This document shows, in pieces, positions 7,205 to 49,090 of a DNA stretch of 64,000 nucleotides (position 1 is the first letter of the stretch; every line of letters starts with the position of its first letter). The DNA lies in contig JABAKD010000016.1 in NCBI GenBank assembly GCA_012845835.1, positions 19,336,696 through 19,400,695 of the forward strand, read 5' to 3'. Below the pieces are notes generated by a model. The model was given only the letters and a program-made list of their open reading frames with translations. It was not told the DNA's origin and searched no databases. Made by a program: the position numbers and the translations under genes. This stretch comes from Undaria pinnatifida (Eukaryota > Sar > Phaeophyceae > Laminariales > Alariaceae).

Positions 7205-7560
7205 TCAACAGTTGTTGTTATTGTTGTTCTCACATTAACTCGCATGATCAAGTCCGTGGTCACAGGACAGGCTCCAGTCACTCTAGAGCTGAGGAATACC
7301 CTAGGGAAAAACACAAAACAACCCAAGGCGGTACACGCACATATCACAGCTGACGCAATTCATGCCTCCACCAGAAACATATAAAAGTGAAATCGGGAGT
7401 CAGTCTACGATGTGCCAGGTCTATACCTGGTGCATACGTCTCATTACTCGCGCCTGGAAAAACCGACCATACCGCTTGCCACCCAAGAAAGACTACCACG
7501 TATATATTACACGTAGTATCTTTCACTACGCATACGCACGACAGACGCACAGTAAGAACA
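7205..7560 (+). repeat. Dispersed repeat B, copy 1 (possible retroposon)
   Basis: Starts with a GTT run, then CTCACATTAACTCGCAT and 'aagtccgtggtcacagg', and runs to 'actacgcatacgcacgac'. It matches 20189-20545 closely over about 350 bp. A truncated copy lies at 43.79 kb and a 3'-end copy on the minus strand at 62.2 kb. The simple-sequence head and the A/G-rich tail of one copy suggest a retroposon, but no polymerase III box was recognised. Confidence 0.75.
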
Positions 7561-16519: not shown

Positions 16520-19500
16520 GGACATCGTTTGTGTTTGTAGGGGGAGGGGGGTGTACGTAATTGCCAGCTTCGACAAGATTTTTGTTTCTATTTCCATTGT
16601 CGAGGTTGTCGGCGTTTGCGTCGACGGGATCTCGGTTGATGCCCGCCCCCCCCCCCCCCCCCCCCCCCCCCTCCCCCCCTCCCCCCAATCCCACTCCTAG
16701 GCGGCGAACATAGCAATATTGTTTGTCCTTGCGCGTACGTGGCCCCACTATTTGTACCGGGCCGCCCGCGCCTTGTTTTGTACAGTAGCAGTAGTAAGCA
16801 TGCAGCCTTGGCTTTAGCTATTTCGTCCTTAGTAGCCCACTGGGTAGGATAGGCGCCGACCCCTTTTGGTTCGGTTGGAGGGTGCCGCGCATTCTGTCTG
16901 CTGTTCCGGTCATTTTTGCGCGTGGTCGATCAAAAATGTTGTTGCGTTGGAAGCGCGTGAAAGCAGCAACATTTCTGTACTATTGTGCTGCGTTTTTTTC
17001 CGTGGTCAGCATCAGTTGGTTGGTTTTCGTCGGTAGATTGGTAGATTGGTTGATTGGTTGACTGGCTGGTTTGTTGATTGTGTGCCTCTTTGTGCCCGAG
17101 GTCGCAAGGGAGGGTGGTCGTGATTTTTAAGCGGTGTAACCGACGAAATAACGCCTTCTGCTGTGGTACTCCTGCTGAATCTGTTGCAGCGGGGGCGGCG
17201 TTTTTAACGAAAACGACTCTATATTCTCGACCTTTTGTTGTCTCTGGAAACAGACACCACCAGAATATTTCATACCAGACCGTACGCGATTATTATGGTA
17301 CAAGGGATACACCAGGAATCGAATGAACTTGCGGGGGGTCTTTCTGGATTATAGGTCTGTCTTGATTTTGAGAGGGTGAGCTTTGGGGCTACACAGCCTC
17401 CGGCTATCCCAGTGTATGTGAATGGGGCGTGGAACGAACAGGAGTTTTAGGTAGCGGGAGACCGGCCTTGAAACGAGGTCGGTTTTCAACTTCATTGTGG
17501 TGGCGGCGTGTAAGCGCTTTCACGCCCACTCCTCTTGTTGTGTTCCGCTTGTTGTGTTTGGCAGTTGCACGAAGACGTAGTGCGTGCGGAAGTGGGAATG
17601 TTAGGGGGGAGAGATGGGGCGGCGGCGGCGGGGGGGGGGGTAGATGGGCGAGTGGATGGGTGGGTGGGCCGCGGGCGAGAGACAGCTGCAAGCCTCTGAC
17701 ATCTAACTGCTACTTGCTCTGTACTGTTTTCTGCAGGCTGCTATATTGTCGTGCACTGCTGCTACTACCAGTAGTACTATTAATATGATAGTGTATGATG
17801 TCCCACGCGTATTTCGCGAGTCCTGTAGAACTGCGCCCACTTTCGGCTAGAAAATACGTGGGAATAGGTCGGGCCATCTCGCGTAACCCCTTCAGAACTG
17901 GAACCACGTTTTTGGCGAAAACATATTTGGCATTGCTGTGAGGCCCTTTTTTCGTGCGCGTGTGATTGCCGGCCTGCCGGCCGCTGGAATTTTTCCGTTA
18001 CCAAAACTGTTGAGTTGAAACGCTTTGTTCAAAGCACTACACCACAGCGGGTGCTCGAGATTTGCCGATTTGCCGGCTCTCATCACCCCCCTCCCCCCCT
18101 TCCCCCGGCCATGCGTGACAACGGGTACAACCCCCCTGCCGCCCCCCCCGCTGTGTTTGTGGTCGCATTATCGTTGATTTTGCGATGCTGGATTACAGAT
18201 GTACCCGGACAAACAATGGTACTCCTAAGATATGGCCATTTCTTACACACTGTACAGTCGGATTTTTTAGTCAAAAACGGCCTTTTTCGACTGAGGCCCA
18301 AATCGGGCTTTCTTACACAATCGAAAAAGGGCTTTTTTGACTCAAGTTTTTTCGACTGAGTTTTCCGACTGGGGGAAAAAAAAAAGCGGGCAGCGACGAA
18401 GAAAAAGCGCGGGGGGGGGGAGCGAGCCGTCCCCGGGAGGGCGATTTCCACGCTCCCCCCTCGCCGAGATGGGGCACCGACAGCCGTTCTTTCGCCGGCA
18501 CGTCGTAGTGCTGCTGTGCAGATGGGACGTCGCGGCACCGCGAGGCCGCCGGAGGCCGAGTGGAGCTCGGGAGTCGCAGCTTTTTTGGGGGGGTGTTATA
18601 ACAAGCTGTTTATAACCAAGATATTGTCAAAGATCCGAAAAAATGACACGACCACGACGTTAGCGTATTATGGCGAAGGGCTCCTCCTGGATCGTTCTGC
18701 TTGTTGTCTCGGGGGGACTGGGGGAGCCCGTGCCGGGTTGGTTGTTCATGGTTGGAAGGGGGTGCACAAGCGAGAGCTGGTCTAAAATGCGTACTCTAGG
18801 TCGGAGCAACAAGGCAAAAAGCAACGTGAAGGAAAAACTGCGAAGAGAGAATTCCAAAAGCCAGACAACGCCATGTATGTAGACTAGACTATGTTATGTG
18901 TGAATACAATCTGCTCTTACTTTTCTTGTTTTTGTCAAAGTTGTTCATGCCAGAAACTCGCGACCTCTCACCGATTTCGGTCACAACGGCGACGATCGAC
19001 CCCATCAGAGGCGTACTAGCTGGATGGGTTGTAAGGGCAGGCAGCAGCTACGTATGATATAGAGGATAAGAGTTTGGGCTCGGCGGCTGGGTTGGGAGAT
19101 ATATTTGGCTTCAAGCGCTGCAGCTGGATTGCTTGGCTTCTGGTTGGTTGCTGTGACGTTGCTTTGTGCTGTCATTGTGGTCATTATTTGGATCATCTAA
19201 TAAACCCCTCACTCCCAGAACAACAATCCCTTCTTTTTCTACTGAAACGCCATCGGCGAGGTCTGCGATTCTGCGATGCACTGCTACTTGTGTGGTTGAA
19301 CATTTGAACGTGACAACGAAAGACAGCGCTCTCTCCACGCTCTGGTGGTGTCCCGCCACAAGCCACGATGCTTTTCGGTTCGTCAAGCTCCGATAAGGTG
19401 ACTATATGGAGTCCTTTTGCTGTAAAAGCAAAGGTAATGCATCAATCGCTAACATGTTTAGCTGTTGCTTTGTTGTGATGTTCTCTCTTTGTCACAGCTT

Positions 19501-20180
19501 TGATTTCAAGGTTGATCTACTGCTGCTGAGCCATCACATCCGCAGCAGCGGCAGCGCGGCAGCAGCAATATGCTCATGCATCATGTCGTACGCAACTGCT
19601 GCCGTAGTCTCGTAGTCTAGAAGAAGTAGAGAGTCTTATATGTACTTAACAGTTTGTACGAGTGCTTGCACATGCTCTTGCTCTCTTTGTGCTGCTGAAC
19701 TCTCTGGCGAAAGCTAAATAGCAGGTACGTTTTACCTCTACGGGTGAGGTTGGAGTGTTGCATGCAGCGATGCAGCACGTTGGCCAGGCGCAGCAGGTGT
19801 CATGATGCAAAAAACAGTAAATGACTGCCGCCGACGTACAGTCAACTACGGTTTATAACAGAGTGTGTAACACCCCCCTGGGATGAAATGCTGACCCTGT
19901 TTCCTCCGAAACCAGCACGGCACCAATAGCAACGGTGGCGGCTTTGGGGGGATGTCGTCCAGATCTTTCCATAGACGTGTCGCTCGGCGTTTGAACTCTA
20001 ACCAAACGGTCGTCGAGAAATCGGCATACGAAACTCGTCCGAGGGTGTGTGCTATACACCGTCACAAACGGTAGTTGAAGGCTGTTGTATCTACCACCGA
20101 CCCCCGGCAATAAACACACGACCAGGTCTCCGTTGGGGATTGAAAAACGAGCATGAAAACCATCGCGAAAAATGGACGTA
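16520..20180. other. Region without a firm gene
   Basis: Contains a C-run at about 16645-16690, a repeated 'ttttttcgactgag' stretch at 18260-18370, and several open frames of under 120 codons on both strands with no recognised domain. A plus-strand frame near 19180-19395 (Ser/Thr-rich) and its antisense are both open, and neither is supported. One short coding-like stretch at about 17129-17190 encodes CGTPAES, as does the first NADAR-gene exon; see findings. Confidence 0.35.
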
Positions 20181-20188
20181 CGAGTACG

Positions 20189-20545
20189 ACGGTTGTTGTT
20201 GTTGTTGTTGTTCTTACATTAACTCGCATAATCAAGTCCGTGGTCACAGGACAGGCTCCAGTCACTCTGGAGCTGAGGAATACCCCAGGGAAAACACACA
20301 CACAACCCAAGGTGGTACACGCATATATCACAGCTGACGCAATTCATGCCTCCACCAGAAACATCTAAAAGTAAAATCGGGAGTCAGTCTACGATGTGCC
20401 AGGTCCAGGCCGGTGCATACGTCTCACTACTCACGCCTGGAGAAACCGAATATTCCGATTACGACCCAAGGAAGACTACCACGTATATATTACACGTAGT
20501 ATCTATCACTACGCATACGCACGACAGGCATAAGTCAATTGGAGA
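20189..20545 (+). repeat. Dispersed repeat B, copy 2
   Basis: The best preserved copy of the family at 7205. It opens with a GTT run, contains 'cactctggagctgaggaata' and 'cctccaccagaaacat', and ends 'cataagtcaattggag'. An A/G-only tract of about 200 bp follows directly, as expected for a retroposon tail that has expanded. Confidence 0.75.
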
Positions 20546-20735
20546 AAAAGAAACAAAGAAAAGAAAAGAAGACAAAGGAAAGGAAAGAAAAGAGAAGAAA
20601 AACGAAACAAAACGAAAAAGGCAAGCAAAGAGAAGAAAAAGACAAGAAAAGCAAGAAAAGACAAGACAAGAAAGCAAGGAAAGAAGAAGAGAAAAAAAAG
20701 AAAAAAGAAATAGAAAAAGAAAAGAAAGAAAAATG
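20535..20735. repeat. Polypurine (A/G) tract of about 200 bp
   Basis: Almost entirely A and G in units such as 'aaaagaaaag', following the end of dispersed repeat B. Frames through it give Lys/Glu-rich peptides that are not genes. It could form unusual triplex-prone DNA, but that is inference. Confidence 0.8.
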
Positions 20736-21285
20736 TCATACTAGAAGACCCTAGGAACTGGCTAAGGATGGCATTGGGCTAACAGACGGTACAGTGTACC
20801 AGGTACATCAATATTCAAAGCCAAGAAAAATTAACCCGGCTATCATACACAGGTTTTACCGATGGGGTGACGGCAGCGCGACGATCTCACACAACTATAT
20901 GGACAACAACGGACAGTACGAGCACGAGTCACCGACCGTCTCATAAGAAAAAGTCCCACAAGAAACTTGGTTTATATGTTCGGGGAAATGCGGGAGTGGT
21001 TATGCTGAAATTACATTATGAACACACCCTTTCTCACATAAGAATATAGCCCCCCCCTCACCCCCCACCCCAACCTCCAACCCCCCTGTGATACCCCCAT
21101 CCACGGCCTTGACTCCGTGCGCCACAACAGCAATGGGTGCAACCGCTATAACCCCTTCCCCTGCCTCCCTCACTCCCTCCCTGCCTTCTTGCTCCGGTTC
21201 CCCTTGCCTTCCGTCGTTCGCTCGTTCGTCCATTGACTTCTTCTTGTTCTTGTTCTTGCTCTTATTTTTGTTCTTGTTCTTCCAG

Positions 21286-24200
21286 AAGCCGACGAAGAAA
21301 GGCTGCGGAGAATTTAACTACCACAACGAGAACACGTTCAGCAACATCTTCCCCTGTGGAACGCCCGCAGAATCAGCCCGCGCGAAGGGCCGGAGCGGCG
21401 GTCGCGGCGGCGGAGGCGGTGGTAGTTGTGATCGTGGCGGTGGTGACGAAGGTATCGGTGGTGGTGGTAGTCACCGGAACGGTGACGGTAGCGGTGGCGG
21501 TAGCGGCAGCGATATGATGGTTTCACCTCCGCGACGTCGAGGTAGAACTTATGGGGATGACGGTGGTGGCGGGGGTAGCGATGGCGGCGGCGATTATGGT
21601 AGTGGCAGCGGTGGCGGTGGTGGACACGAATTGGTGGGTTCGCCGCTGAGAAATATGGTCAAGGTTACCGACGGCAGCGGTAGGCGCGTCGGTAGTCCCG
21701 TCGGTAATCGCGTCCGTATCCGCGACCGCGGCGGCGACGGTGGTGGTGGTGGGATGGAGGTGCTATCGTGTCCGAGGAGACGAGAGAAAAAAGGATGCAA
21801 GGGTGGCAGCGGCGGTGGCAGCGGCGGTGGTGGCGGCGGCGGTACAGGCACCGGTGGCGGAGACGGTGGTCGAAGCGGCGGTGTTCTTGAGACAGCGCGA
21901 GCGTCAGTACAGCTCGGGCTTTCGAGAAAGGCGGGGCGTAGCGGGGGTGACGGAAAGAGCGGGATGGGGTGCGGCAAACCGGTGATCAGCGGCAGCTTGG
22001 GTCGGGTCATCAGCTCGGGTTGCGGCAGCAGCCCGGGTTATAGCGGCACGGGGCTTGGTAGCAGAAGGGGGCTTGGCGTTCGCGGCACGAGGCTCGGCAG
22101 TCGGGATCGATTACAGCAAGGAAGGAGACACGACGAAAGACCCTTTGTTGTTAACGGTGGCATGGGCGGCGGTGGCTCCTACGGTGCTGACCGCGGCGTC
22201 GGTGGTGGCGGCCGCGGCGGTTACGGCGACGCCGGGGTGGTGGAGACGGAAGGGATGGTGCTCTTCTGGAAGGCCCCGGCGTGCTTCGCGCAATGGACGC
22301 CTTCAATGTTCGAGGTGGACGGGGTGAGAAAAAACATTCAAATGGAGACGCAAGGGTACGAGAAGAAAACAAAAATTGCGACACCCCACGACAGTAGTTT
22401 GTGGGATCTAAAAAGCGCGGGTCGTACAAATGCTATGCGCAATTGGTTTAAATGTGTTATTTTTCAGTTCGTGTAGGAACCCTACTGCGCTGTTTTCGTT
22501 CCATTCTGACCTGCAGAGGAAGGTGGTATCGTTGTCTGTTACGGTGTAACCTAGGTGGATAGATGCCAGTTTTGTTTCTGGCCATGACATGGGGTCAAGT
22601 TAAGTCGGTTTTAAGACCCCTTACCCCGTCCCCGTGCCCTACCCCCCGTCCCTGTATCTCACGCACACTCCGATCCTGCTGTGCGTGTTCTTTTTCTCAC
22701 GACGGACGCTCACTCGTGGCGCGCGTGGTACTCTTTTCCGTCACGGCTTGGCTGGCTGACAGACGACGTACTACAATGCCGAGCAGTGGATGATGGCGAG
22801 CAAAGCACGGCATTTCAGGGATAGGTGTGACACTAAAAACGTACGACTGAGGCCATCTCTTACAATAAACTGATGCTGAAAACCGAAAATGGAGGTTTCG
22901 GCACCTTCGCAGGCGTGTTTGACCCGGGGAACGGGACAATCGGGCCCGCTTTTCTCGAAGTCCGACTAACCTTTTTCCGAGACGCATTCAACGACAACGA
23001 CGTTTGCCGTTTCTTCGGAATATCGGTTTGAGTTTTACGAAACCAGGTTCGGATGTTTATCGCGGTTTCATCCGACACAGTGACCTATTTTTCGGATGAA
23101 TGGTTTTGAGGCAGCTGCGGTGTATCGGAAAAAAATCAAACTCCTATCTTCAAGAGAAGGCAAATGTCGTTGAATGCGTTTCGCAACAAGGCTAGTTGAA
23201 CTCTGAGAAGAGCGGGCCCGATTATCATGTTCGTCGTTGGATGCGTTTCGCAAAAAGGCTAGTCGGACTTTAAGAAGAGCGGGCCCGATTATCATGTTCC
23301 CCGGATCAAACACGCCTGCGAACGTACTGAAACCTCCATTTTCGGTTTTCAGAATCAGTTTATTACAAGAGATGATCTGACGCCGACTCGAAACGGCGGG
23401 GTGAAGGGAGCGTTTTCAATAGAGACGGTGCGTAGGAGACCGAGGTTTGACCCCTTGGCTGAATATCCACCCCCTATACATTAGCTAGCATCTTATGAAA
23501 AAAAGACGTCTTGGCGCGACCGAAAAGACCGGCCTCTATTAGTTGCATGTTTGATTTTCGACGGTCTATGTGCCGCCCGGCCGATACGACCAGACAAACC
23601 AAACGCGTCCGCCCCAACCGCGTGGCCCCCAACTCCCGCCGCCGTTGTGTATCGATGCGACGTAGCGTGATGCAACACGACGTAATATCGTGTTCGAGGT
23701 CGTTTGCCATGCGAGTGGCCCCGGTCAGTCCCATTGTGTTTCGTTACGGGCCCCGTTCCGCGATTCATGCCCCCCCCCCGTTCCTCGCCCCCGCCCACGC
23801 CCACACCCCCACCACCTCCCACGCTCACCTCAGGAAGACGCTTAGGCAGATCATGAACACTGAGGACCCTCGAGAGATGAAGGCCCTGGGCCGTCTGGTA
23901 AAGGACTTCGATGCCTCGGTGTGGGATGACGTCGGCTTCGACCTGGTGGTGAAGGGTAATCTGGAGAAATTCCGCCAGAACCCTATTTTTCGGGATACGC
24001 TGCTGGCTACGGGATCGAAGGTGCTTGCGCCCTTTGTACCCTTTGCGCGCGCTCTGCGTACCCCTTGCGTGCGCCTGCGTGGTGCTTCTTTCTTATTTTG
24101 GCATCTGATGGGGCGTGTGTGTTTTTTTCTGCGTCTGACGCTGCGTGTTGCTGGGTCTAATTACTTTTTGTTCGTTTTGTGTCTTCGTTAAGGCTATTAT

Positions 24201-25653
24201 CGGACGTGTTGCATAGAAAGAAATGATTTTATAGACTAAAAGGCATCGGCGCCCAGAGCTCCGTGCGTTTTTTTGTTTCGTTTTCATGTTTTGTATGTAC
24301 CCTTGTTCATTCGTTCACCCACCCATCCGCACCCACTCGCTCAACCCATGCCATTCGTCCCATCCATGTACCATCCATCGCATCCACTCACCCACCCACC
24401 CATCCACCAGCCCACACACCTATGCATTCATCCATCCATCCATCCATCCATCCATCCATCCATCCATCCATCCATCCATCCATCCATCCATCCATCCACA
24501 CATCCATTCATCCATCCGTTCACCCATCCATTCGTCCAATCGATCACCCGTCAGTTCATTCATCCATCCACCGAGATTTCAGTTTCACTATTATTAGTAG
24601 ACGCGCCCCCACCCCCACCCCCGCCTCAACGCACCGTCTTTTGTTTTTGTGTTGCAGATTCTGGCGGAGGCTAGCCCGTTTGATAACGAGTGGGGAATAG
24701 GACTCCACGCTAGCGACCCCGACGCGCTCGTACAATCCAGGTACAACTGTAGGTACTCCCGTTTTTTTTCTCTGTGATACTGTCATTGTGTCGTACGGGG
24801 TAGCGGGGGTGGTGGTGTAATCCCAACGAGGTACGTACTGCTACTGTTGCCTTTCTGCGGTGCGTTTGTATGATAGGGCCTGTGCACCGCGTGGGGTGAT
24901 ACTGGTAGTGGTGATGGTGGGGGAGGGGTTACTGCTGTGGGTGGCGGTGGGCATCAGGGGGGTGGTGGAGGTGGTGGTGGGGGTGGTGGAGGTGGAGGCA
25001 GTGGTGGTGGTGGGGTTGGAGGCGGTTGTGGTTGGGATGGGGGTGGTAGTGGAGGTGGAGATGATGAGGGTGGTGTTTGTGTTTGTTTTGGAGTTGGTTT
25101 GTTTTGGTGGTGTTGACTGTGTTGTGATGTTTTCGGTGGCTGTGGTAGTGGTTGTAGTAGTGGTGGTGTTTTCGGCAGTGTTAATGGTGGTGGTCGTTGC
25201 AACGATGGTGGTGGATGTAGCGGTGGTAGTGTTGGTGGCGGTGTAGGTAGTTATGTAGGTGTCATGGTGGCGGTGGTGGTGGTGGTGGTTGGGGTGGCGG
25301 TGCTGTTGAGATTGCTGCTGGTGTAGCTGACGATGGTGTTGATGATGGTTTTGGTGGTGTGGCCCGTGTCTTTTTCTTTATCTTTGCACCTTTCGATGTA
25401 ATGTATGGTCTTATATTTTTTAACGACGGGGACGGGACTGTTCATGACCGGGAAAACGGGCACCTGCAAGCCTTACGCGGAAACGTGTCAAGTCCCGGGA
25501 AGGCTCATTTTTTCTTTCTTCGTTTTTTGCCGCCGCTCATGCCCCCGCCCCCCAAGATGGCCTGGATTCAACAAGCTCGGGGAAGCGCTCATGGACGTTC
25601 GCACGAAGCTCAGGGAAGAGACGCCGGCTTTCCTTGGTTGGGGGCAGGGATAG
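21286..25653 (+). CDS. NADAR-domain (YbiA/DUF1768) protein with Gly-rich N terminus
   Basis: Exons are 21286-22323, 22763-22824, 23834-24020, 24658-24740 and 25557-25653. All introns are GT-AG with consistent phases (0, 2, 0, 2), ending in TAG. They encode 488 residues; an upstream first exon is probably missing, because 21286 follows a strong polypyrimidine tract and TTCCAG. Residues 1-320 are Gly/Ser/Arg-rich low complexity. The rest is a full NADAR domain: [20 protein letters not shown], then [16 protein letters not shown] (the family's YNxAEx(Y/F/W)xxxxK signature), [52 protein letters not shown] (the SPFDxxWGIG signature) and [15 protein letters not shown] at the end. NADAR enzymes are N-glycosidases: YbiA and plant relatives cleave damaged riboflavin-pathway intermediates, and others remove ADP-ribose from guanine. 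Which substrate applies here cannot be read from sequence. The domain is split over all five exons, so single-ORF gene calling would miss it. Confidence 0.88.
22845..23380. mobile_element. Foldback element in the second intron of the NADAR gene
   Basis: The outer arms at about 22850-22995 and 23215-23375 are reverse complements at high identity. Both contain 'gaaaaccgaaaatggaggtt', 'cgcaggcgtgtttga' and 'atcgggcccgct'. The inner end of the right arm ('agcgggcccgattatcatgt') is duplicated in tandem at about 23211 and 23278. There is no transposase. The element lies between the NADAR exons ending at 22824 and starting at 23834 and must be spliced out. Confidence 0.85.
24425..24500. repeat. CATC tetranucleotide microsatellite
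   Basis: A nearly pure run of CATC units, flanked by degenerate 'ccatccatt' and 'cacccatcc' sequence from about 24310 to 24565. It lies in the third NADAR intron and produces spurious His/Pro/Ser-rich open frames in all three forward frames. Confidence 0.95.
24890..25350. repeat. GTG/GGT-rich low-complexity tract in the NADAR intron
   Basis: Long imperfect GTG, GGT and GGTGGTGGG runs. Forward translation gives a Val-rich frame and reverse translation a Pro-rich one; neither is a gene. It occupies the intron between the last two NADAR exons. Confidence 0.8.
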
Positions 25654-25675: not shown

Positions 25676-25706
25676 GGTTAGGGTTAGGGTTAGGGTAAGG
25701 GTTAGG
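25676..25706 (+). repeat. Interstitial telomere-like TTAGGG repeats
   Basis: Four to five units of TTAGGG, one with an extra-base variant (TAAGGG), start about 23 bp after the NADAR stop codon. This is the telomere repeat of many eukaryotes, stramenopiles included, but single-copy DNA continues on both sides, so it is not a chromosome end. Confidence 0.8.
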
Positions 25707-26144
25707 CAACCTTCCCTTTGCCGACTCGGTTATGCGGGCTCGGGTCGGATCGGGCTGCAACGCGCGCCATCGCAAGGAATGGAGGGGGGGGGGGGGGGGG
25801 GGTTGCTCTGCTTTGCTTTGCCGTTTGTTGCTTTGCATTGCGTCTTTTGCCTTGCCTTTTCTTCTTGTGTTGTTTCTGTTTACTTTGTTTACTTTTTTTC
25901 GTTTTCGTGTTTTTTGTTTGTGTTTTTGTTCGTCACGGTTTTTGTGGTATTCTATTTGTTTTTTTAGGTTTTTAAATTGTTGGTATCAGATTGAGATTAA
26001 GGTTCAGTTCAGATTAGTGTTCTGTGCTCGTATAATCATTGCGTTGTTTTTGTTTCGAGGCTTTTTTTTATGTGTTGTGTTCGTTTGTTTTTGTGTTTGT
26101 TTCCTCCGGTCGCAATTAGGTTCATATCGATTTATGGTTGTGCG

Positions 26145-37500: not shown

Positions 37501-40500
37501 GAGTCAACGGCGAGCCGGTGCTCTCTGTGTGGAGTAAACGCTACCGCAGAAAACGTCGCTCGGCGATTGTTACCCTCTCCGTTGCCGAGAAAATCAACAT
37601 ATAAAAAGTCGTCCGAGCGTATGCGTCATGTTCGCGTTATACGGCAATCTCTCACAGCTCATAAGACATCTCACCAGAAGACGCCAAGTACATCCCCGGG
37701 TACATCCAGAGCATCGCCATCTGCAACCCCCGCGATCCGTGCGCCTCCACGATGAACTCCACCGCGTCCTTGCCACCCGCCGCCGCCGCTCCGAGGCCAT
37801 CGGCTTGGGTGGTGGACACAGCCGAAGAGGACGGTAGCATCATCAAGCCGGACACTGGTCCAGACCAATCTAAGCTGCTATCGCTATCACTACCGCTACC
37901 GCTCGGATTACCGCTTGCGGCAACGGCAGCGTCAGCAGCAGCGTACACGATATCCGTAGCGTTCGCGTTAGCGAAGGCAGCCGCGGTAGAGGTTGCCGTG
38001 GCGGCGGTAGTGACAGCGGCAGTAACAGCAGCAGTAGTGGCTGCTGCAGCAGCTGCAGCGGCGGCGGTGGCGCCTGTCGCCGCCCCCGCGAGGGGCTCGG
38101 CGAAGAAGCGAAAGGTGTGGGTGGTGTCGAACCGTGCGCGCAGCAGAGGCACGAGGGTGGTGGAGAGACCGCTGATGTTGGTGATAATGAAGTTGTACAG
38201 GGCGACGCTGGTGACTCGGACGCGCCGGGGAACGAGGGCCATGACAACTGCGAGGACCACTCCGATCCACCTGCGAAAAAGCGAATAGAGGTTATGCTTG
38301 TTTCGGTTATTGGAGAAGAAGAAAACAACGAAACAGGTTAACAACGGCATTTAACAACGACGTTGACTCTATGGAAGAACAACACCAATACGAACAACAG
38401 CAGCAGCAGCAACAACAACGACAATAACAGCAGCAGCAACGAGGGCAACAAACTACAGCAGCAGCAACAATGACAACGACAACAACAACAACACACCTGG
38501 GTGGAGAAATGTGCTACCATAACCAAAACCTCAAAGTCAATACCACAAACATTAAGCAAAACGATAAAAACACACAAACCAAAAAGGGTTGAAGAAAAAA
38601 AGGGACCGAAACAACTAAACAAGAAAAAAAAAGAGAACTTACATCTCTCCCAGCAATTCAACTCCCAGCAGGCACAGGAAGCACCACGGGTAAGGGGCGA
38701 GGAGAACCCCTACAGCAAATGGCGAAGCCAGAGCGTTGGACACGATCACCACCCAAAGCCGGCCTGCCGTTCCGAGGCGCTGCTCGTTGTTCGCGAAAAG
38801 ATAAAAGAGACAAAACAACGGAAGAGCAACAGGCAGCATGAACAGAAGAACAAAAAAAACATAAAAAAACATCAGAAAACCTACGAGCGCTTGTCCGAGG
38901 TGCGCTGGCAGGCGAAAAACAAGGGGGGGGAGAAACGGACTACAGCAACAGGAGAAAAAGCAAAGGCAAGACACAATACTCGTGCAAGAGATACACATAA
39001 AAAAAAACAACACTCACAAAAAAAAGGAAGAGTTCAGCAAAGGCAACAGCAACGGTAACACAAACGGAAACGGTACCTGTAATGAAAACAGTACCCACCC
39101 CCCCGTCCCCTCCCGTTCTCACCTGTGCCAGACGGTCGGACAGGAAGCCCCCGACCATCGCGCCGATCGAGCCTCCGACGAGTGGGACCCAGGACACAAA
39201 CCACTCCAGCTCGGAGGGGGGCATGCCGACGTCGTGCCAGGGGGACCCCGTGAGTCGACTGCAACCGCCGTTGACACACCACGGGAACTCCTCGTTGCAA
39301 ATCTGTTTATATTTCGGTGCCAGTGTAAGGCCAGGGGTCGTGATAGGGATCAGGACAGACGTCGCTATGGGTTCGCGGGGGTCGGACAGGGGTAGGGATA
39401 AGGGTAACCCAACCCAACCCAACCTAACCTAACTCAATCCAACCACACAACACACCCCGATGCAACCCAACCATACTCAATCCAAATCAACCCAACCCGA
39501 CCCGTTCTCCATCCAACCCAGCCCAACCCAACCCAACCCAACCCAACCCAACCTGACCCAATTCTCATCCACCTAACCCCAGCTCAATTCTCACCAAATC
39601 CAATCCAACCCAACCCCAATCCCAACCTAACCCAACCTGACCCCGGCCACAAACGCCTCAAGAACGTAAATAAACACCCACCTAACCACCCACCTGTCTG
39701 CCACCGTAACCGGCGTCGTACGAGGTCGAGCACGGGCCGGCGCCCCCGTGCCTAGTCAACGCCGCGTTCCCGTCCATCAGCGGGCTAAAATAGCTCGACA
39801 TATAGTACCCGAACACGAAACCGCCCGCATCCCGGACCCCACCCGCGACACAAACGAGCAGCAGCGAGGGGGACCCCAGCCAGGCCTCCGAGAGAGCCGG
39901 TAGCTTGCCGAGCAGCCGGTGGAGTGGCGACGATGATGGTGGCCGTGGGGTCAGTGCCGGTAGCGGTGGTGGTGGCGATGGCGGTGGTGGCGGTGACAGC
40001 AGCGGCGACAGCGCGCTCGACCGTAGCCGCGCTCCTCCCGTCCGGGTATCGCGGGACGCTGGAGATAGGTCACCCTCTGGCGTACCATTACCAATACCGT
40101 TACCACTGCTCTTACCGCTGCTGTTACCGTTGACGTTACTCCTACCACTGTTGGTACCGTTACCGACACTATTACCGCTACTGTTACCATTGCGGCGACC
40201 GCTCCCCCTACCACCGGCTATACCACCGCCACCACCAACACTTAACCCACCATTCCCTACCCCCTCGGGATAATCCCCGGCGACAGCAGCATAGGCGAAA
40301 CTAGAGGAGGAATTAATGGCGGAGCTAGAGGCAAAGGGGGCAACATCGGCCGAAAATCTCGCCGCTCCCGGCAGACCCACCGCCACCACCACCCCCACCT
40401 CCTCCCTTATCCCTACCTCCACCCCGGCTCGCGTTGGCGGAGGCGGTGGCGGCGGCGGTTGCGGTTCGGGAACGGTCCAGAAGGCTACAATCGCCACCAA

Positions 40501-41957
40501 GAAGCCGCCTAGCGCCGCCAGCACGTAGGCCCACTTCCAACCAAGCACGTCATCCACTATCGTACCCACCCCCAGGGACAGGCTAAACCCGGCGTACAGG
40601 CCCACGTAGTACACGCCTTTTTGGTTTTGTTTGCGGTGGCGGTGGCGGTAGCAGGAGGAGAAGGGGGGGTGTTAATCATGTTATACATAGCCGTAGACCT
40701 TAGGAAAATAGACACTTGCATGCCTACGATGCCGGGACGGAGGACGTCGGGGGGGGTTACGGAGCTTTACGAAATTATGGGCGGTGGGGTTTGTCGAGAG
40801 GGGGGTGGGGTGGCGGGGGGGCGGCGCAGGGGGGTCGAGAGGAGGTCTCACCTATTGCGGAGCCGATAACCTCAGGGCCGAAATGATCCCGCAGGATGCT
40901 GGCGGCGAAAGGGCTACACGCGGCGTCTCCGATGCCTTGTCCCACCCTCGCCAGCGCCACCTTTAGCAATAAAAACCGGCATGAATCACAGGTATGCCAT
41001 ATGATAAGAGCACGGCCATTTTGAGATTATTGCGGTGGATAGACACAGGAGAGAAGCACAGAAGGGGGAAGGAGGAGCCAGGGAGAAGGCGGGGAGAGGG
41101 CCGGGGGGTTGGGAACGGGGGGACGGGGACGGGGGGGGGTGGGGAGGGAGGGAGGGAGAGGGAGAAAGAGGGAGGGAAGAAAGCACGCCGTGAAGGAAGC
41201 GCGACGTTTAGTTGTCTCGATATCATCAATTTCTCCTTTTCTCGTTTTTTATACTTTGATCTTCGGTTTGTTCCGCTCGCACCTGCCAGAAGTTACGCGA
41301 AAACGCCACCGCTCCAGTGGACGCGCTCCAGACCATGCACGCCGTGCACAGAAGCTACCAAATGCGTCCCCCAAGAAGATGACGAGAAGGTCCGGAGAAG
41401 GGGCGCCACGGCGGCAGGCAGGGAGGCAGACAGATGGGTACAGCGACGGACAGCCAGAGGGATCGATACATAAATAGACAATAATACGACAGACAGGCGG
41501 ATAGACAAGACAGTCAGACAGACAGATACCATGTAAAATAAGCACACAGTCAGACAGGGAGCAAGCGAGCGCGCAATCAATCCAAGCCCTGTACACCCTG
41601 CCCTACGGCACCCTACCCTACCACACTCTACGAGCACCCTCCCCACTATACCTGTACCTACCATTGCTCTACTCCTACCCTATCATACCCTTTATCATAC
41701 CCTACCCTTACCCTAACCTGCCCGTATCCTACATTTACCCCACCCAACCCTACCCTTATCGTACCCATGCCTTCCATTACCCTACCCTACCCTACCCTGC
41801 TCTACCCTACCCTACCTCACCCTACCCAACACTTACCCGCACGGGGCGGGCATCCCCCACGAGGCTAAGGAGCACCCCGGCGACAGAGTTGACTCCGGTG
41901 AAAAAAGGGCCCGCGATGAGGGCGAACTCGTAGCTGTCGTAGTCAAGAAAGGGTACC
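34878..41957 (-). CDS. Spinster-like Major Facilitator Superfamily transporter, at least 8 exons
   Basis: Exons, in coding order on the minus strand, are 41957-41837, 41354-41283, 40960-40852, 40616-39694, 39302-39123, 38779-38643, 38270-37675 and 35509-34878. All junctions are GT-AG and phases agree, giving about 922 residues up to a stop at 34880-34878. Membrane segments read in family order: FALIAGPFFTGVNSVAGVLL, the loop GDARPVR (the MFS G-D-R loop), LLCTACMVWSASTGAVAFSR, VALARVGQGIGDAACSPF, VYYVGLYAGFSLSLGVG, WAYVLAALGGFLVAIVAFW, SWVPLVGGSIGAMVGGFLSD, LWVVIVSNALASPFAVGVLL, ALYNFIITNISGLSTTLVPL and a last helix ending VFCLFALMALGRD. The domain order resembles spinster (SPNS) lipid transporters. 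Low-complexity inserts enlarge the central loop (about 165 residues) and the last extramembrane loop (Ala-rich). The tail is Gly-rich and ends near EETEKTPLLGG, a possible acidic dileucine sorting signal. Membrane helix 1 and the start codon were not found; one more exon upstream of 41960 is expected. Substrate unknown. Confidence 0.85.
35655..35760 (+). repeat. End fragment of dispersed element A
   Basis: Contains 'gtgcactcatttcaagcatc', GCCGTAG, 'aacctcgcatccctac' and 'gcgacggagcacgccgggtt', then stops. It lies in the last intron of the transporter gene. Confidence 0.65.
36095..36195 (-). repeat. tRNA-derived repeat head, copy 1
   Basis: Minus strand: GGTCGCCCCGGTGGCGTATC with 'aggttatcctcgagcc' carries an A-box-like TGGCGTATCAGG, and GTGAGTTCGAGCCCCCC carries a B-box-like core about 50 bases later. 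The first 20 bases are shared with the copy at 58.44 kb although the rest differs, which fits retroposons with a common tRNA-derived head. It lies in an intron of the transporter gene. Confidence 0.55.
36742..36815 (-). repeat. Duplicated exon end of the transporter gene, inside its own intron
   Basis: Reads 'ctctcaccagaacacgccaa', then 'gtacacccccc' and 'gcatccagagcatcgcc'. It closely matches 37669-37710, the 3' end of the transporter's seventh exon plus its GTGAGA donor. The copy is about 930 bp downstream in the gene. It lacks the rest of the exon, so it is a non-functional partial duplication or a decoy splice site. Confidence 0.7.
37018..37192. mobile_element. Short MITE with TA target duplication
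   Basis: Terminal inverted repeats begin GGGGTCCCCC and continue ARNAAGGCGGTRTY (left 37018-37041, right 37169-37192). The 175-bp element is flanked directly by TA (37016-37017 and 37193-37194), the target duplication of Tc1/mariner-type elements. Inside, the phrase 'ataccgcctt' is repeated. It has no coding capacity and lies in the last intron of the transporter gene. Confidence 0.85.
37455..37500. repeat. CAG trinucleotide microsatellite
   Basis: About 15 CAG units, starting near 37457, within the transporter gene's last intron. Confidence 0.9.
38385..38495. repeat. CAA/CAG-rich microsatellite
   Basis: Imperfect CAACAG and CAACAA runs in the sixth called intron of the transporter gene. 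Reverse translation gives Cys/Leu-rich frames, which are spurious. Confidence 0.8.
39405..39650. repeat. AACCC-type short tandem repeat
   Basis: Degenerate AACCC units ('aacccaacccaacccaacct') through the fourth called intron of the transporter gene. On the other strand this reads GGGTT, which is telomere-like in character but of the wrong register. Confidence 0.85.
40670..40765 (+). repeat. End fragment of dispersed element A
   Basis: Shows 'gtgttaatcatgttatacat', AGCCGTAGACC, 'cttgcatgcctacgatgccg' and 'ggacggaggacg', a diverged version of the element A end. It lies between two transporter exons. Confidence 0.6.
41585..41830. repeat. CCCTA-type degenerate repeat
   Basis: Repeated 'taccctaccctacc' units end just before the splice donor at 41836 of the first recognised transporter exon. 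They give an open frame rich in Tyr/Pro, which is not a gene. Confidence 0.8.
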
Positions 41958-45998: not shown

Positions 45999-46200
45999 CT
46001 GACAGCATTGTAGCAGGAATCAGAAGCAGAAGTCATTGCTCAACTGCTGTTTGTAAAATGATATGATATGGCACCTTTGATACCGCGTCGTTCGATGGCA
46101 GGCGACCTACCGCGGCGGCCAAACGAGAGACCGAGTGGTCCGAACAGCGCTGGCCGAATTCCGCGACATATGCGACCGAATATCGACCGAATGCTCTGGT

Positions 46201-49090
46201 ATGAGTGCGGCGGCGGACACCCTTACGTTCCACCGACCCAGTGACCTCCCGCGCTGTTTCGGTGCCGACGCCCTCGCGGCTACTGCTGGTTTTGCTGCCG
46301 CTACTGCTACTGCCGCGCCTACTGCCAATGGTACTGCTGCTACTGCTACGGTCACTACCGCAACTGCTGCTGCTTCTGCTGCTGCAACTGCTGCTGCTCC
46401 TAGTGCTCCTGCTTCTGCTGTTGCTACGGCTGCTACCGCTTCTGCTGCTGCTACTACTGCTGCTGTCACCGCTACTGCTGCTTCTACTGCTGCTGCTGAT
46501 ACTGCTACTGCTGCTGCCCCTGATACTGCAACTACTGCAACTGCTGCTGTCTCCCCTCCTGCCCCCTCGGACGAGGGCGGCGAGGACCCCCCCGCCGCCT
46601 CCGCTGCCGTCACCAGCAACAACGAAAACAGTGAGTTGCGGCGGGCAGTCAATCCGATATCGGCCTCCCCGGCCCGGAAAGCCCCCCCTCCCCAGGCCGA
46701 ACGTGCACTAAACGCGTCCCGCGCGCACCACGAAAGTGATGGCAGCACAGAAACAGCTGGCGGATCGAGAGAGAGCCGTCCCGTGGACGTGGTCGTCGTT
46801 GTCGGGGATAATCAAGAATATAAGGAAGAGGAGGAGGAGAAGCTGGGCGGGGGGGCGGAACACCGTAGACAGCACGATGGAATTTTCGGCCGTGGCGGCG
46901 GAAGAGGTGGTGATGGAGGAGGAGGAGGTGATGGTGGTGGAGGAGAAAGAGAAAGAGTAGGAGACGGAGGTGGAGAATATGGGGAAGAAGGAGAATGTCT
47001 CTTCACGTACAGCGACGGGGAGTTAGAGGACAGCTTAGCGGCGGCGTCGTCGTCGACAGGAGGGGACGGCGCCGCTGCCCTTCTTTCAGCCCCTCTACCC
47101 CTCGCCTTCCCTGCATCGAACACCGCCGATCGTTTCGTTTCAACAACGGCCGCACGGGACCAACACCATTCCCATCACTACCACCGCCGCCACGGCAGCG
47201 GTGGTGATGGAAGCGGTGGGGAACTACAGCAACAACAAGGAAAGGGCGGTAGGGGTGGAAACGCCCGAGATGACAACGGTCGCGGGGTGGGCGATCTCTC
47301 GCGCCCGCCCGCCGCTGCCTCCTCCGACTCAGAACGAGAGCGCCTCCCAAGCGCTAAAGGCGTTGGTATTTCCGACGTTACCGTCGTACCAAGCGTGTCC
47401 GGCGTGCCCAGCGTGTCGGGCGTGTCCGGCGTTTCTGGCTTATCGTCGCGGAAAACGTCGTTGTCGCCGCCGCCCGTCGCTGCCGACGGAAACCCTCCTG
47501 TTAGCGGTGACCGCTACCCCGATGAAGCGCTTCATGTTGCCGAGGATGGCATGTTGGACCGGGTCGCCCGCGAGCGCCTGCCTGAGACTCAAGAGGCGCA
47601 GGAGACGCCGGAGTTGCTGGGTGGTGATGTCCGCCAAGATAGGGACGAGCAGGGCGGGAGAGGACGGGCCACCCAGGGTGTGGAGAGGGCGGAGGTGGCG
47701 GTGGATATGGCTGTGTCGTCGTCGTCGTCGTCAAGCGGTGAGCAGGGGGCTAGTAAGAGCGTTCGCTTTCCTCTTCTTGCTGCTTCTGACGTCACCACCT
47801 CTACCACTAGCGTTACTACCAGTGCTAGCGCCACCGCTACCGCCGCCGCCTCGTACGGCATCCCCTCCGCGGTGCTGAACGACGGCGAGCTGTACGACGG
47901 CGGTGACAACGGTGGTAGCCTGTGGGAATTTCACGATGGCCCCCGCATGGCGCTGTCATCGTCGTTCGCCAGCAGCTGTGAGACAACACCGTTGAAGGGA
48001 GAGGCCATTTCAGCCGCCGCCGTCATTGCCGCCGCCACCGCCACCTATACCACCGATCCCGTCGCTCTCGGAAGCGACTACCCTGATGCAGCCGAAGGCG
48101 TTATAGATGCCTCGGGAGCGGTTAGGGAGTGCCGGGGGACACCAGCGCTAGATGGGGTGTCCTATAAACTCAATAGTGGCGGAGGGTGGGGGTTTGGGGA
48201 AGACGCGGCCGGAATCGCCCGCGATCTCCCGAAAAAATGGGGGCCGCTGTACCGCAACGACGACGTGGAGGGGGGCTTGGAAGGACGCGCAGGACCACGC
48301 GCCTCGACTGTGGCTGTGGTCGCGGCAGTTGACGATAATGTCTACTTGGATCGAGAAAGATCCACCAAAATCGCGGATGCGAGTTCGTCGGAGCTGGAGG
48401 AGGAGCTACGCAGGATTCGTGAAGCGCTGGCCAACCGTGTGCGGGTGGGTGTGTAGAGTGGAGTGGCGTGGGATGGGGTGGGGTGGGGTGTAGTGGGTGG
48501 GTGCTTGGGTGAGGGGTTGTGGGTGGGTGGCTGGGTGCGTACGTGGCTGGGTCGAAAACCATGTGCCCGGTTGTTATTTTCGGCTGTTGTGGCGATTATC
48601 CGTTTTCGTAAGTGTCTTAGATCTTTCCTATGGGCGTATCCATTGAGGGTAGTGTTAATGCGTATGTACCTGACACCGGTACTTTTTTGTCTGCTGTTAC
48701 TCCAACACAGCACCAACACGAGTGGCTGAGGGTGCGGTCTTTTCGACACGCACGCGGCGTTGATGCCATCGTGTCCCGTGGCTTTCCTTGCCACCAACGC
48801 TGTTATCGCGGCCATTGTTTGCACCTACCCCAGAAACCATTTTTGGACTTTGAAAGTGTCGCGCGGTTGCGACGGTCGCTGTTTATACCGACACGTTCGT
48901 AAATTTTCTCACGGCATGCCTTCCCTGTCTCCTCGTATGCGGGTGTCATGTCCCACTCTTTTGCATTTCTTTGCTTTCTTGCATGATTTATTTGCAGTAC
49001 CTGCAGCAGTCCCGGAAGCGAGAAGAGATCGGGGATGCGTCAGAACGAGATCCTTGTGACGTAGCGCGGCGGCTATTGGAGAGACGATGA
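46201..49090 (+). CDS. Ala-rich unknown protein, two exons, about 776 aa
   Basis: Exon 1 is 46201-48438 and exon 2 is 48998-49090 (acceptor TTTGCAG), phase 0, ending in TGA. The 2.3-kb open frame is by far the longest in the window. Start: the in-frame ATG at 46201 gives MSAAADTLTF; the frame is open back to 46081, so an upstream exon entering at an AG near 46101 is possible. Residues about 25-130 are Ala/Thr repeats from GCT/ACT-type codons. A Ser/Pro and acidic region follows, then Gly/Asp-rich stretches and a better mixed C-terminal half with SVSGVPSVSGVSGVSG. It ends in a predicted coiled coil that crosses the splice (SSELEEELRRIREALANR joined to YLQQSRKREEIGDASE). That continuity is good evidence for exon 2. 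A second donor six bases later (48444/48445) is possible. No known domain was recognised; probably intrinsically disordered. Confidence 0.65.

What the first reader, a model, noticed from the sequence alone, without database searches (positions are those of the whole stretch)
21286..25653. Split-exon NADAR enzyme fused to a long Gly-rich region
Five exons join in phase into a complete NADAR domain behind about 320 residues of Gly/Ser/Arg low complexity. NADAR proteins elsewhere are mostly short and single-domain, or part of riboflavin-pathway or ADP-ribosylation systems. A low-complexity N terminus could drive condensate formation or nucleic-acid binding and suggests a role beyond metabolite repair. 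Sequence shows the domain; the role is inference.
Basis: partly seen in the sequence, partly recalled or inferred. Interest (0 to 1): 0.75.

Follow-up and report, generated by a model that had tools for sequence, protein, structure and literature searches.

The report
Kelp NADAR enzyme gene, glycine-rich start
A single-copy kelp gene is predicted to encode an ordinary NADAR-type enzyme that cuts sugar-base bonds; the glycine-rich stretch in front of it may be translated but looks unremarkable, and the more interesting fact is that retrotransposons in the same genome carry the same domain.

Summary
Five exons join in phase; the product matches Pfam NADAR over profile positions 2-163 of 163 (E 2.3e-47 for the last 167 aa), and each used junction scored best among 15, 40, 52 and 30 combinations tried. 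Active-site residues of the YbiA type are kept. Assembly figures point to Undaria pinnatifida (inference). The Gly/Ser/Arg region is open in frame more than chance gives, but the gene's start was not found: 21286 looks like a 3' splice site. By one criterion six other Gly-rich open stretches lie in the window, two inside intron 4 of this gene, and no RGG cluster is present, so the condensate or nucleic-acid reading is not supported. The best other copy among those scored in the genome is 51% identical, while 150 further NADAR matches pass the cut-off; two that I read are Gypsy polyproteins, a kind published for Ectocarpus. One shared residue and weakly supported trees tie the gene to those elements. 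New member of a known kind; modest interest.

The parts
21286..22323 (+). exon 1 as given: 35 residues of ordinary sequence, Gly/Ser/Arg-rich region, first strand of NADAR
   Evidence: open frame, junction ranked first; a genome search with its first 37 residues returned only itself
21391..22248 (+). Gly/Ser/Arg-rich low-complexity region, in frame with NADAR, translation not shown
22249..22323 (+). start of NADAR domain piece (EGMVLFW...FEVDG)
22763..22824 (+). exon 2, holds the conserved E32 and K39 of the domain piece
23834..24020 (+). exon 3, holds R66 and W76
   Evidence: the only exon of this gene among the rows listed by the whole-genome protein search
24658..24740 (+). exon 4, holds A111, catalytic-type E112, D117 and W120
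25557..25653 (+). exon 5 with stop codon TAG at 25651-25653
21237..21285 (+). pyrimidine-rich (CTTGTT)n tract and CAG: likely 3' splice site of an unseen upstream intron
21133..21285 (+). alternative: same frame open upstream to an ATG at 21133
20195..20791 (.). dispersed repeat sequence ending about 500 bases before exon 1; 20528-20791 has 39 scored copies 96-98% alike, 20195-20527 has a copy elsewhere in the window (91-93%); that the two pieces are one element is inferred
22854..23374 (.). fold-back (MITE-like) repeat inside intron 2, arms 142 nt, 88% complementary

Best explanation
This is a single-copy nuclear gene, most likely of the kelp Undaria pinnatifida, that encodes a YbiA-type NADAR hydrolase. 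Shown: the full domain, in-phase exons and the kept active-site residues. Inferred: the enzyme holds the ADP-ribose or ribose-phosphate part of its substrate and hydrolyses the N-glycosidic bond between ribose and a base or amine, as tested relatives do on ADP-ribosylated guanine (E. coli YbiA, an oomycete NADAR) and on riboflavin intermediates (E. coli YbiA). The likeliest use in the cell is housekeeping repair of such N-ribosyl adducts (damaged riboflavin intermediates or ADP-ribosyl-guanine), not an antidote to a DarT toxin. The Gly-rich stretch is most likely a translated simple-repeat extension without a specific job.
For: Pfam NADAR E 2.3e-47; sequence matches to solved NADARs 8bau (E 6.2e-15) and YbiA 2b3w (E 5e-6); of nine P. 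nicotianae residues named in PMC11543638 (passages) eight (E43, K50, K75, R79, W89, E125, D130, W133) are identical and R93 is Gly (numbering offset of 2 fixed by me). Glu at 112 marks the YbiA class, not BC4488 (Asp) or phage (His), as defined in PMC11543638 and PMC11125620 (passages). No DarT match in the genome, one PARP exon match. The genome's two RibD_C matches lie on other contigs and show no NADAR within about 10 kb on either side, so no plant-like PYRR fusion was seen. Of 150 scored matches to the window domain (1,436 candidates) none but the gene's own exon 3 exceeds 51% identity.
Against: No transcript, protein or assay. The riboflavin model TIGR02464 (147.5 bits, cut-off 73.7) does not decide the substrate: 7 of 7 other NADARs tested, from retrotransposons, a phage and bacteria, pass it too. 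The R93 position, Lys or Arg in 32 of 33 own-genome rows, is Gly here. DarT, PARP and RibD searches read exon by exon and can miss split genes. No second brown-algal genome was at hand, so selection on the gene, and the fate of the Gly-rich part, could not be measured. Single copy rests on scored candidates only.
Confidence: 0.75

Rival explanations
1. The gene is a NADAR taken over from, or given to, the Gypsy retrotransposons that carry NADAR in the same genome: host gene and element domains share one origin within brown algae, and the host gene acquired or kept introns.
For: In a 50-row tree the gene is sister to element family A at 91/81, and all 33 own-genome rows plus the gene group at 92/93. 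In the 92-row tree the gene and the 8 own rows used are one side of a branch at 76/89.6. Residue 111, just before E112, is Ala in the gene and in 30 of 33 own-genome rows, but in 1 of 125 bacterial, phage and viral rows, where it is Val in 115.
Against: No such branch is starred; the 92-row bootstrap had not settled and its printed tree leaves the gene in an open fork. Identity to the best viral row (53% over 150 columns) and best bacterial row (52%) is as high as to the elements (51%). Holding the own rows together without the gene is not rejected (p-AU 0.3), so direction is open. The own rows are near-copies of a few lineages, so 30 of 33 are not independent, and one residue may be convergent. 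Apart from one oomycete fragment no other eukaryote could be added.
Confidence: 0.4
2. The Gly-rich region is not translated: it is 5' untranslated or intronic simple-repeat DNA, and the protein starts at the Met at 22255 (MVLFW) or 22162.
For: In-frame ATGs at 22162 and 22255 would give a compact NADAR; Gly-rich open stretches also occur in intron 4.
Against: Stop-free in this frame beyond shuffles; the best pyrimidine content before any of 63 AGs inside 21330-22260 is 0.64, though the modelled intron 1 acceptor has only 0.60, so this is weak.
Confidence: 0.25
3. The Gly/Arg/Ser region is a functional disordered domain that binds nucleic acid or drives condensates and directs the NADAR to ADP-ribosylated nucleic acid.
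For: 35% Gly, 11% Arg, net positive (46 K+R against 27 D+E), 4 RGG and 8 RG motifs in 321 residues.
Against: No clustered RGG or RG, 10 aromatics in 321, and six other Gly-rich open stretches in this window.
Confidence: 0.1

Closest known systems
Esi0017_0056, Ectocarpus NADAR (DUF1768) protein (PMC7922944; abstract, section 2.1 and passages read)
   Same: brown-alga, intron-containing gene with a YbiA-type NADAR domain; the paper names two further Ectocarpus relatives, CBJ32535 and CBJ27468
   Different: 391 aa with NADAR at 132-291 and two predicted introns; here four introns inside the domain, domain at the C-terminal end, Gly-rich front. Orthology not testable here.
Gypsy retrotransposons with NADAR at the N-terminal part of Pol, Ectocarpus (PMC12477816; passages read)
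   Same: same domain; in this genome two stretches that I read (ORFs of 2473 and 2371 aa) carry NADAR, RVT_1, RNase H, Integrase_H2C2 and rve
   Different: the elements hold NADAR in one long frame; the window gene is split by introns, Pfam finds only NADAR in its product and no other scored copy exceeds 51% identity. Its introns and flanks were not scanned in full for element remains.
Phytophthora nicotianae NADAR, PDB 8bau (PMC11543638; abstract and passages read)
   Same: eukaryotic YbiA-type NADAR; 8 of 9 named residues identical
   Different: R93 is Gly here; the N-terminal extensions were not compared
E. coli YbiA, PDB 2b3w
   Same: sequence match over residues 13-129 of the domain piece; the seven residues tallied are kept
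   Different: weak match (29.8 bits), short bacterial protein without introns
Plant PYRR riboflavin reductase-NADAR fusion (recalled)
   Same: NADAR at the C-terminal end of a longer protein
   Different: the genome's two RibD_C matches lie on other contigs and have no NADAR within about 10 kb

Membership tests
NADAR superfamily (PF08719) | match over the curated cut-off along the whole profile | tested here: met
   161.7 bits against 35.1, positions 2-163 of 163
NADAR superfamily (PF08719) | conserved ligand and catalytic residues | tested here: met
   E32, K39, R66, W76, E112, D117, W120 present; the R93 equivalent is Gly
YbiA family of NADARs | Glu (not Asp or His) at the position of P. nicotianae E125 | tested here: met
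   E112 aligned to E125
DarT1-associated NADAR antitoxin (BC4488 family) | Asp in place of that Glu, and a neighbouring darT | tested here: not met
   Glu here; no DarT match in the genome, control rang in 1 of 14 genomes
DS32_2 anti-phage NADAR (NF053876) | score over the curated cut-off | tested here: not met
   31.2 bits against 240
Riboflavin-intermediate N-glycosidase (TIGR02464) | score over the equivalog-domain cut-off | tested here: inconclusive
   147.5 against 73.7, but 7 of 7 other NADARs incl. retrotransposon and phage ones pass too
Riboflavin-intermediate N-glycosidase (TIGR02464) | activity on early riboflavin intermediates | not testable with these tools
   needs an assay
Gypsy NADAR retrotransposon | NADAR in one frame with RT, RNase H and integrase; many copies | tested here: not met
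   only NADAR in the product, introns inside the domain and a stop soon after it, no other scored copy above 51%
RGG/RG-motif protein | clustered RGG or RG repeats within 0-4 residues (definition recalled) | tested here: not met
   no tri-RGG, di-RGG or tri-RG

The most novel reading that the evidence does not exclude
The gene and the Gypsy elements' NADARs descend from one brown-algal NADAR that crossed between host and retrotransposon, and both serve on opposite sides of an unknown nucleic-acid ADP-ribosylation system of the alga: elements use NADAR to strip the mark from their RNA or cDNA, the host copy keeps its own nucleic acids clean.
Probability: 0.1. Interest if true: 0.75.

Novelty: new member of a known kind. 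Interest (0 to 1): 0.33.

Why it matters
On its own it adds one eukaryotic NADAR gene with a clear active site to a family whose eukaryotic roles are described as unclear (PMC11125620, passages). Its wider value is as a host-side counterpart of the NADAR-carrying Gypsy elements: it offers an alternative source (or descendant) for a domain that the Ectocarpus study suggested may have come by horizontal transfer, its blastp hits outside Ectocarpus being almost exclusively bacterial, and this can be tested with other brown-algal genomes.

Tried and rejected
Rejected: chance open frame as the whole account of exon 1. Rejected: the gene as one of the Gypsy copies. Thought unlikely: DarT antidote; plant-like riboflavin fusion (in the control on 17.0-30.0 kb of the window, plus strand, one profile, the same procedure found all five exons, exon 1 only at E 0.075, and one chance row at E 0.53). 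Led nowhere: single-protein scan of viral contigs (no relative confirmed); Rfam and tRNA scans of the window (none); Pfam on ten long window ORFs gave one family over its cut-off (MFS_1, 39685-40671 minus strand, 35.8 against 33.4 bits); a search for a 5' exon (ATG in 17301-21200, phase-0 GTGAG or GTAAG within 900 bases) gave two overlapping rows with one donor after 19030, not convincing. A first count of residue 111 by text pattern was misled by a second EAT site and was replaced by alignment counts. Structure prediction was not asked for, because the spliced protein is not a contiguous reading of the window.
Full report
Where it is. The window is G000:C22:19336696-19400695 of a genome of 511,146,479 bases in 68 contigs. 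One contig is 16,510,065 bases long, exactly the scaffold N50 printed for the Undaria pinnatifida assembly, whose total is given as 511,280,173 bases in 114 scaffolds (PMC7058681, passages). The contig number and total differ a little, so small scaffolds may be missing here. I take the source as Undaria pinnatifida, a farmed kelp; this is inference from those numbers.

The observation. The exon coordinates reproduce a 488-residue frame plus stop. Pfam finds one family, NADAR, at 157.9 bits in the whole product and 161.7 bits in the last 167 residues. Two profiles built locally from NADARs without the window (one with, one without own-genome rows) put the used junction first for all four introns, among 15, 40, 52 and 30 combinations including the used one; the runners-up were about 5 to 15 bits lower.

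Active site. Using the phmmer alignment to PDB 8bau and residues named for that protein in PMC11543638 (passages), E43, K50, K75, R79, W89, E125, D130 and W133 are identical in the window protein (E32, K39, K62, R66, W76, E112, D117, W120) and R93 is Gly. The numbering offset of 2 is mine, chosen because it puts E and K on the named positions. The R93 position is Lys or Arg in 32 of 33 own-genome rows, so the Gly is a peculiarity; the position varies in the nine-row alignment too. Glu at 112 places the domain in the YbiA class as those papers define it. PMC11125620 (passages) reports that all four E. coli NADAR types tested removed ADP-ribose from guanosine, and PMC11543638 (abstract, passages) reports guanine de-ADP-ribosylation by the oomycete protein. 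That is why I expect N-glycosidase activity. The physiological substrate stays open: TIGR02464, named for the riboflavin role, accepts 7 of 7 other NADARs tested as well, two of them from retrotransposons, one from a phage and four from bacteria.

The Gly-rich region. First, by one fixed criterion the window holds six other Gly-rich open stretches, two of them in intron 4 of this gene. Second, RGG or RG clusters are absent. Third, the start is unknown: a pyrimidine-rich tract ends in CAG at 21285, with pyrimidine content above those of the four modelled acceptors (0.88 against 0.60, 0.80, 0.72, 0.76), yet no convincing upstream exon was found, and a dispersed repeat, 96-98% alike to its 39 best scored copies (40 of 2,345 candidates scored, the window's own included), ends about 500 bases upstream. 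Alternatively the frame continues to an ATG at 21133, or the protein starts at an internal Met.

Copies elsewhere in the genome. A NADAR family search scored 150 of 1,454 candidates; the 150 listed are over the cut-off, some with stops inside, and none of them is the window gene. With the window domain as query, 150 of 1,436 candidates were scored; the best other match has 51% identity, and the only higher row is the gene's own exon 3. A search with the first 37 residues of exon 1 returned only themselves. Two stretches with long frames were read in pieces: each holds NADAR followed by reverse transcriptase, RNase H, Integrase_H2C2 and rve, the Gypsy layout (order recalled). [quoted passage not shown] That the other matches are Gypsy too is inference from long frames and likeness; I did not read them.

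Relation of gene and elements. From the 150 places I fetched 40, mostly rows without stops, besides 8 loci with the same NADAR letters; after dropping 8 duplicates and 7 rows under 140 aa, 33 own-genome rows remained. In a 50-row tree (with 9 of 10 bacterial loci, 6 phage rows and YbiA) the gene is sister to element family A at 91/81, inside a group of all own rows at 92/93; neither is starred. For a 92-row tree I took 8 of the 33 own rows and added 67 of 110 further viral and bacterial rows, those scoring over 90 bits and under 72% alike, plus the oomycete fragment. There the bootstrap had not settled and the printed tree leaves the gene in an open fork; in the best tree it and the 8 own rows are one side of a branch at 76/89.6, and holding the 8 own rows together without the gene is not rejected (p-AU 0.3). 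Residue 111 is Ala in the gene and in 30 of 33 own rows; of 125 other rows 115 have Val and 1 has Ala. The own rows are not independent. A common origin is therefore plausible but not shown, and its direction is open. L040, a divergent own row, could not be examined further.

Partners. No DarT match was found in the genome (the control rang in 1 of 14 genomes) and one PARP exon match, 33.6 bits against 26.7 (control 0 of 14). Two RibD_C exon matches have no NADAR within about 10 kb on either side, while the same procedure on part of the window picked up all five exons of the window gene, exon 1 only at E 0.075.

Literature. A search for 'NADAR domain' with 'glycine-rich' gave 0 papers. 'NADAR' with 'brown alga' (20 of 80 papers listed), with 'retrotransposon' (20 of 104), with 'ADP-ribos' and 'transposable element' (10 of 12) and 'YbiA' with 'Ectocarpus' (2 of 2) gave, in what was listed, PMC12477816 and PMC7922944 as the relevant ones; word-start matching also catches unrelated names. 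PMC7922944 (abstract, section 2.1, passages) describes Esi0017_0056, a stress-induced Ectocarpus NADAR protein of 391 residues whose expression improved salt and heat tolerance in Arabidopsis. So a NADAR gene in a brown alga is not new; a Gly-rich front end was not found in print in these searches.

Verdict. A real, probably functional NADAR gene, single-copy as far as scored, with an unremarkable low-complexity front; new member of a known kind. The possible link to NADAR-bearing Gypsy elements is the part worth a second look.

Noticed in passing
genome-wide, e.g. L096:397-7815 and L097:885-7997: Two long Gypsy frames carry a NADAR domain in this kelp, and 150 NADAR matches over the cut-off were listed in the genome; eight fetched loci (L007-L014) have the same NADAR letters, suggesting recent activity.
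   Followed up: partly
window 22854-23374: Fold-back, MITE-like repeat in intron 2, with a 67-bp tandem pair at 23166-23299; 40 of 236 candidates scored genome-wide gave 145 matching pieces.
   Followed up: partly
window 25678-25707: Interstitial telomere-like TTAGGG repeats about 25 bases after the stop codon of the gene.
   Followed up: no
window 20195-20791: Dispersed repeat sequence (partner near 7211-7544 in the window); 2,345 candidates genome-wide for the 20528-21285 query, best 96-98% alike over 20528-20791.
   Followed up: partly
window 39685-40671, minus strand: ORF with a weak Major Facilitator Superfamily match just over the cut-off (35.8 against 33.4 bits); perhaps an exon of a transporter gene.
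   Followed up: no
window 46081-48453, plus strand: 791-codon open frame rich in Ala, Gly and Ser without a Pfam match at E 0.1.
   Followed up: no
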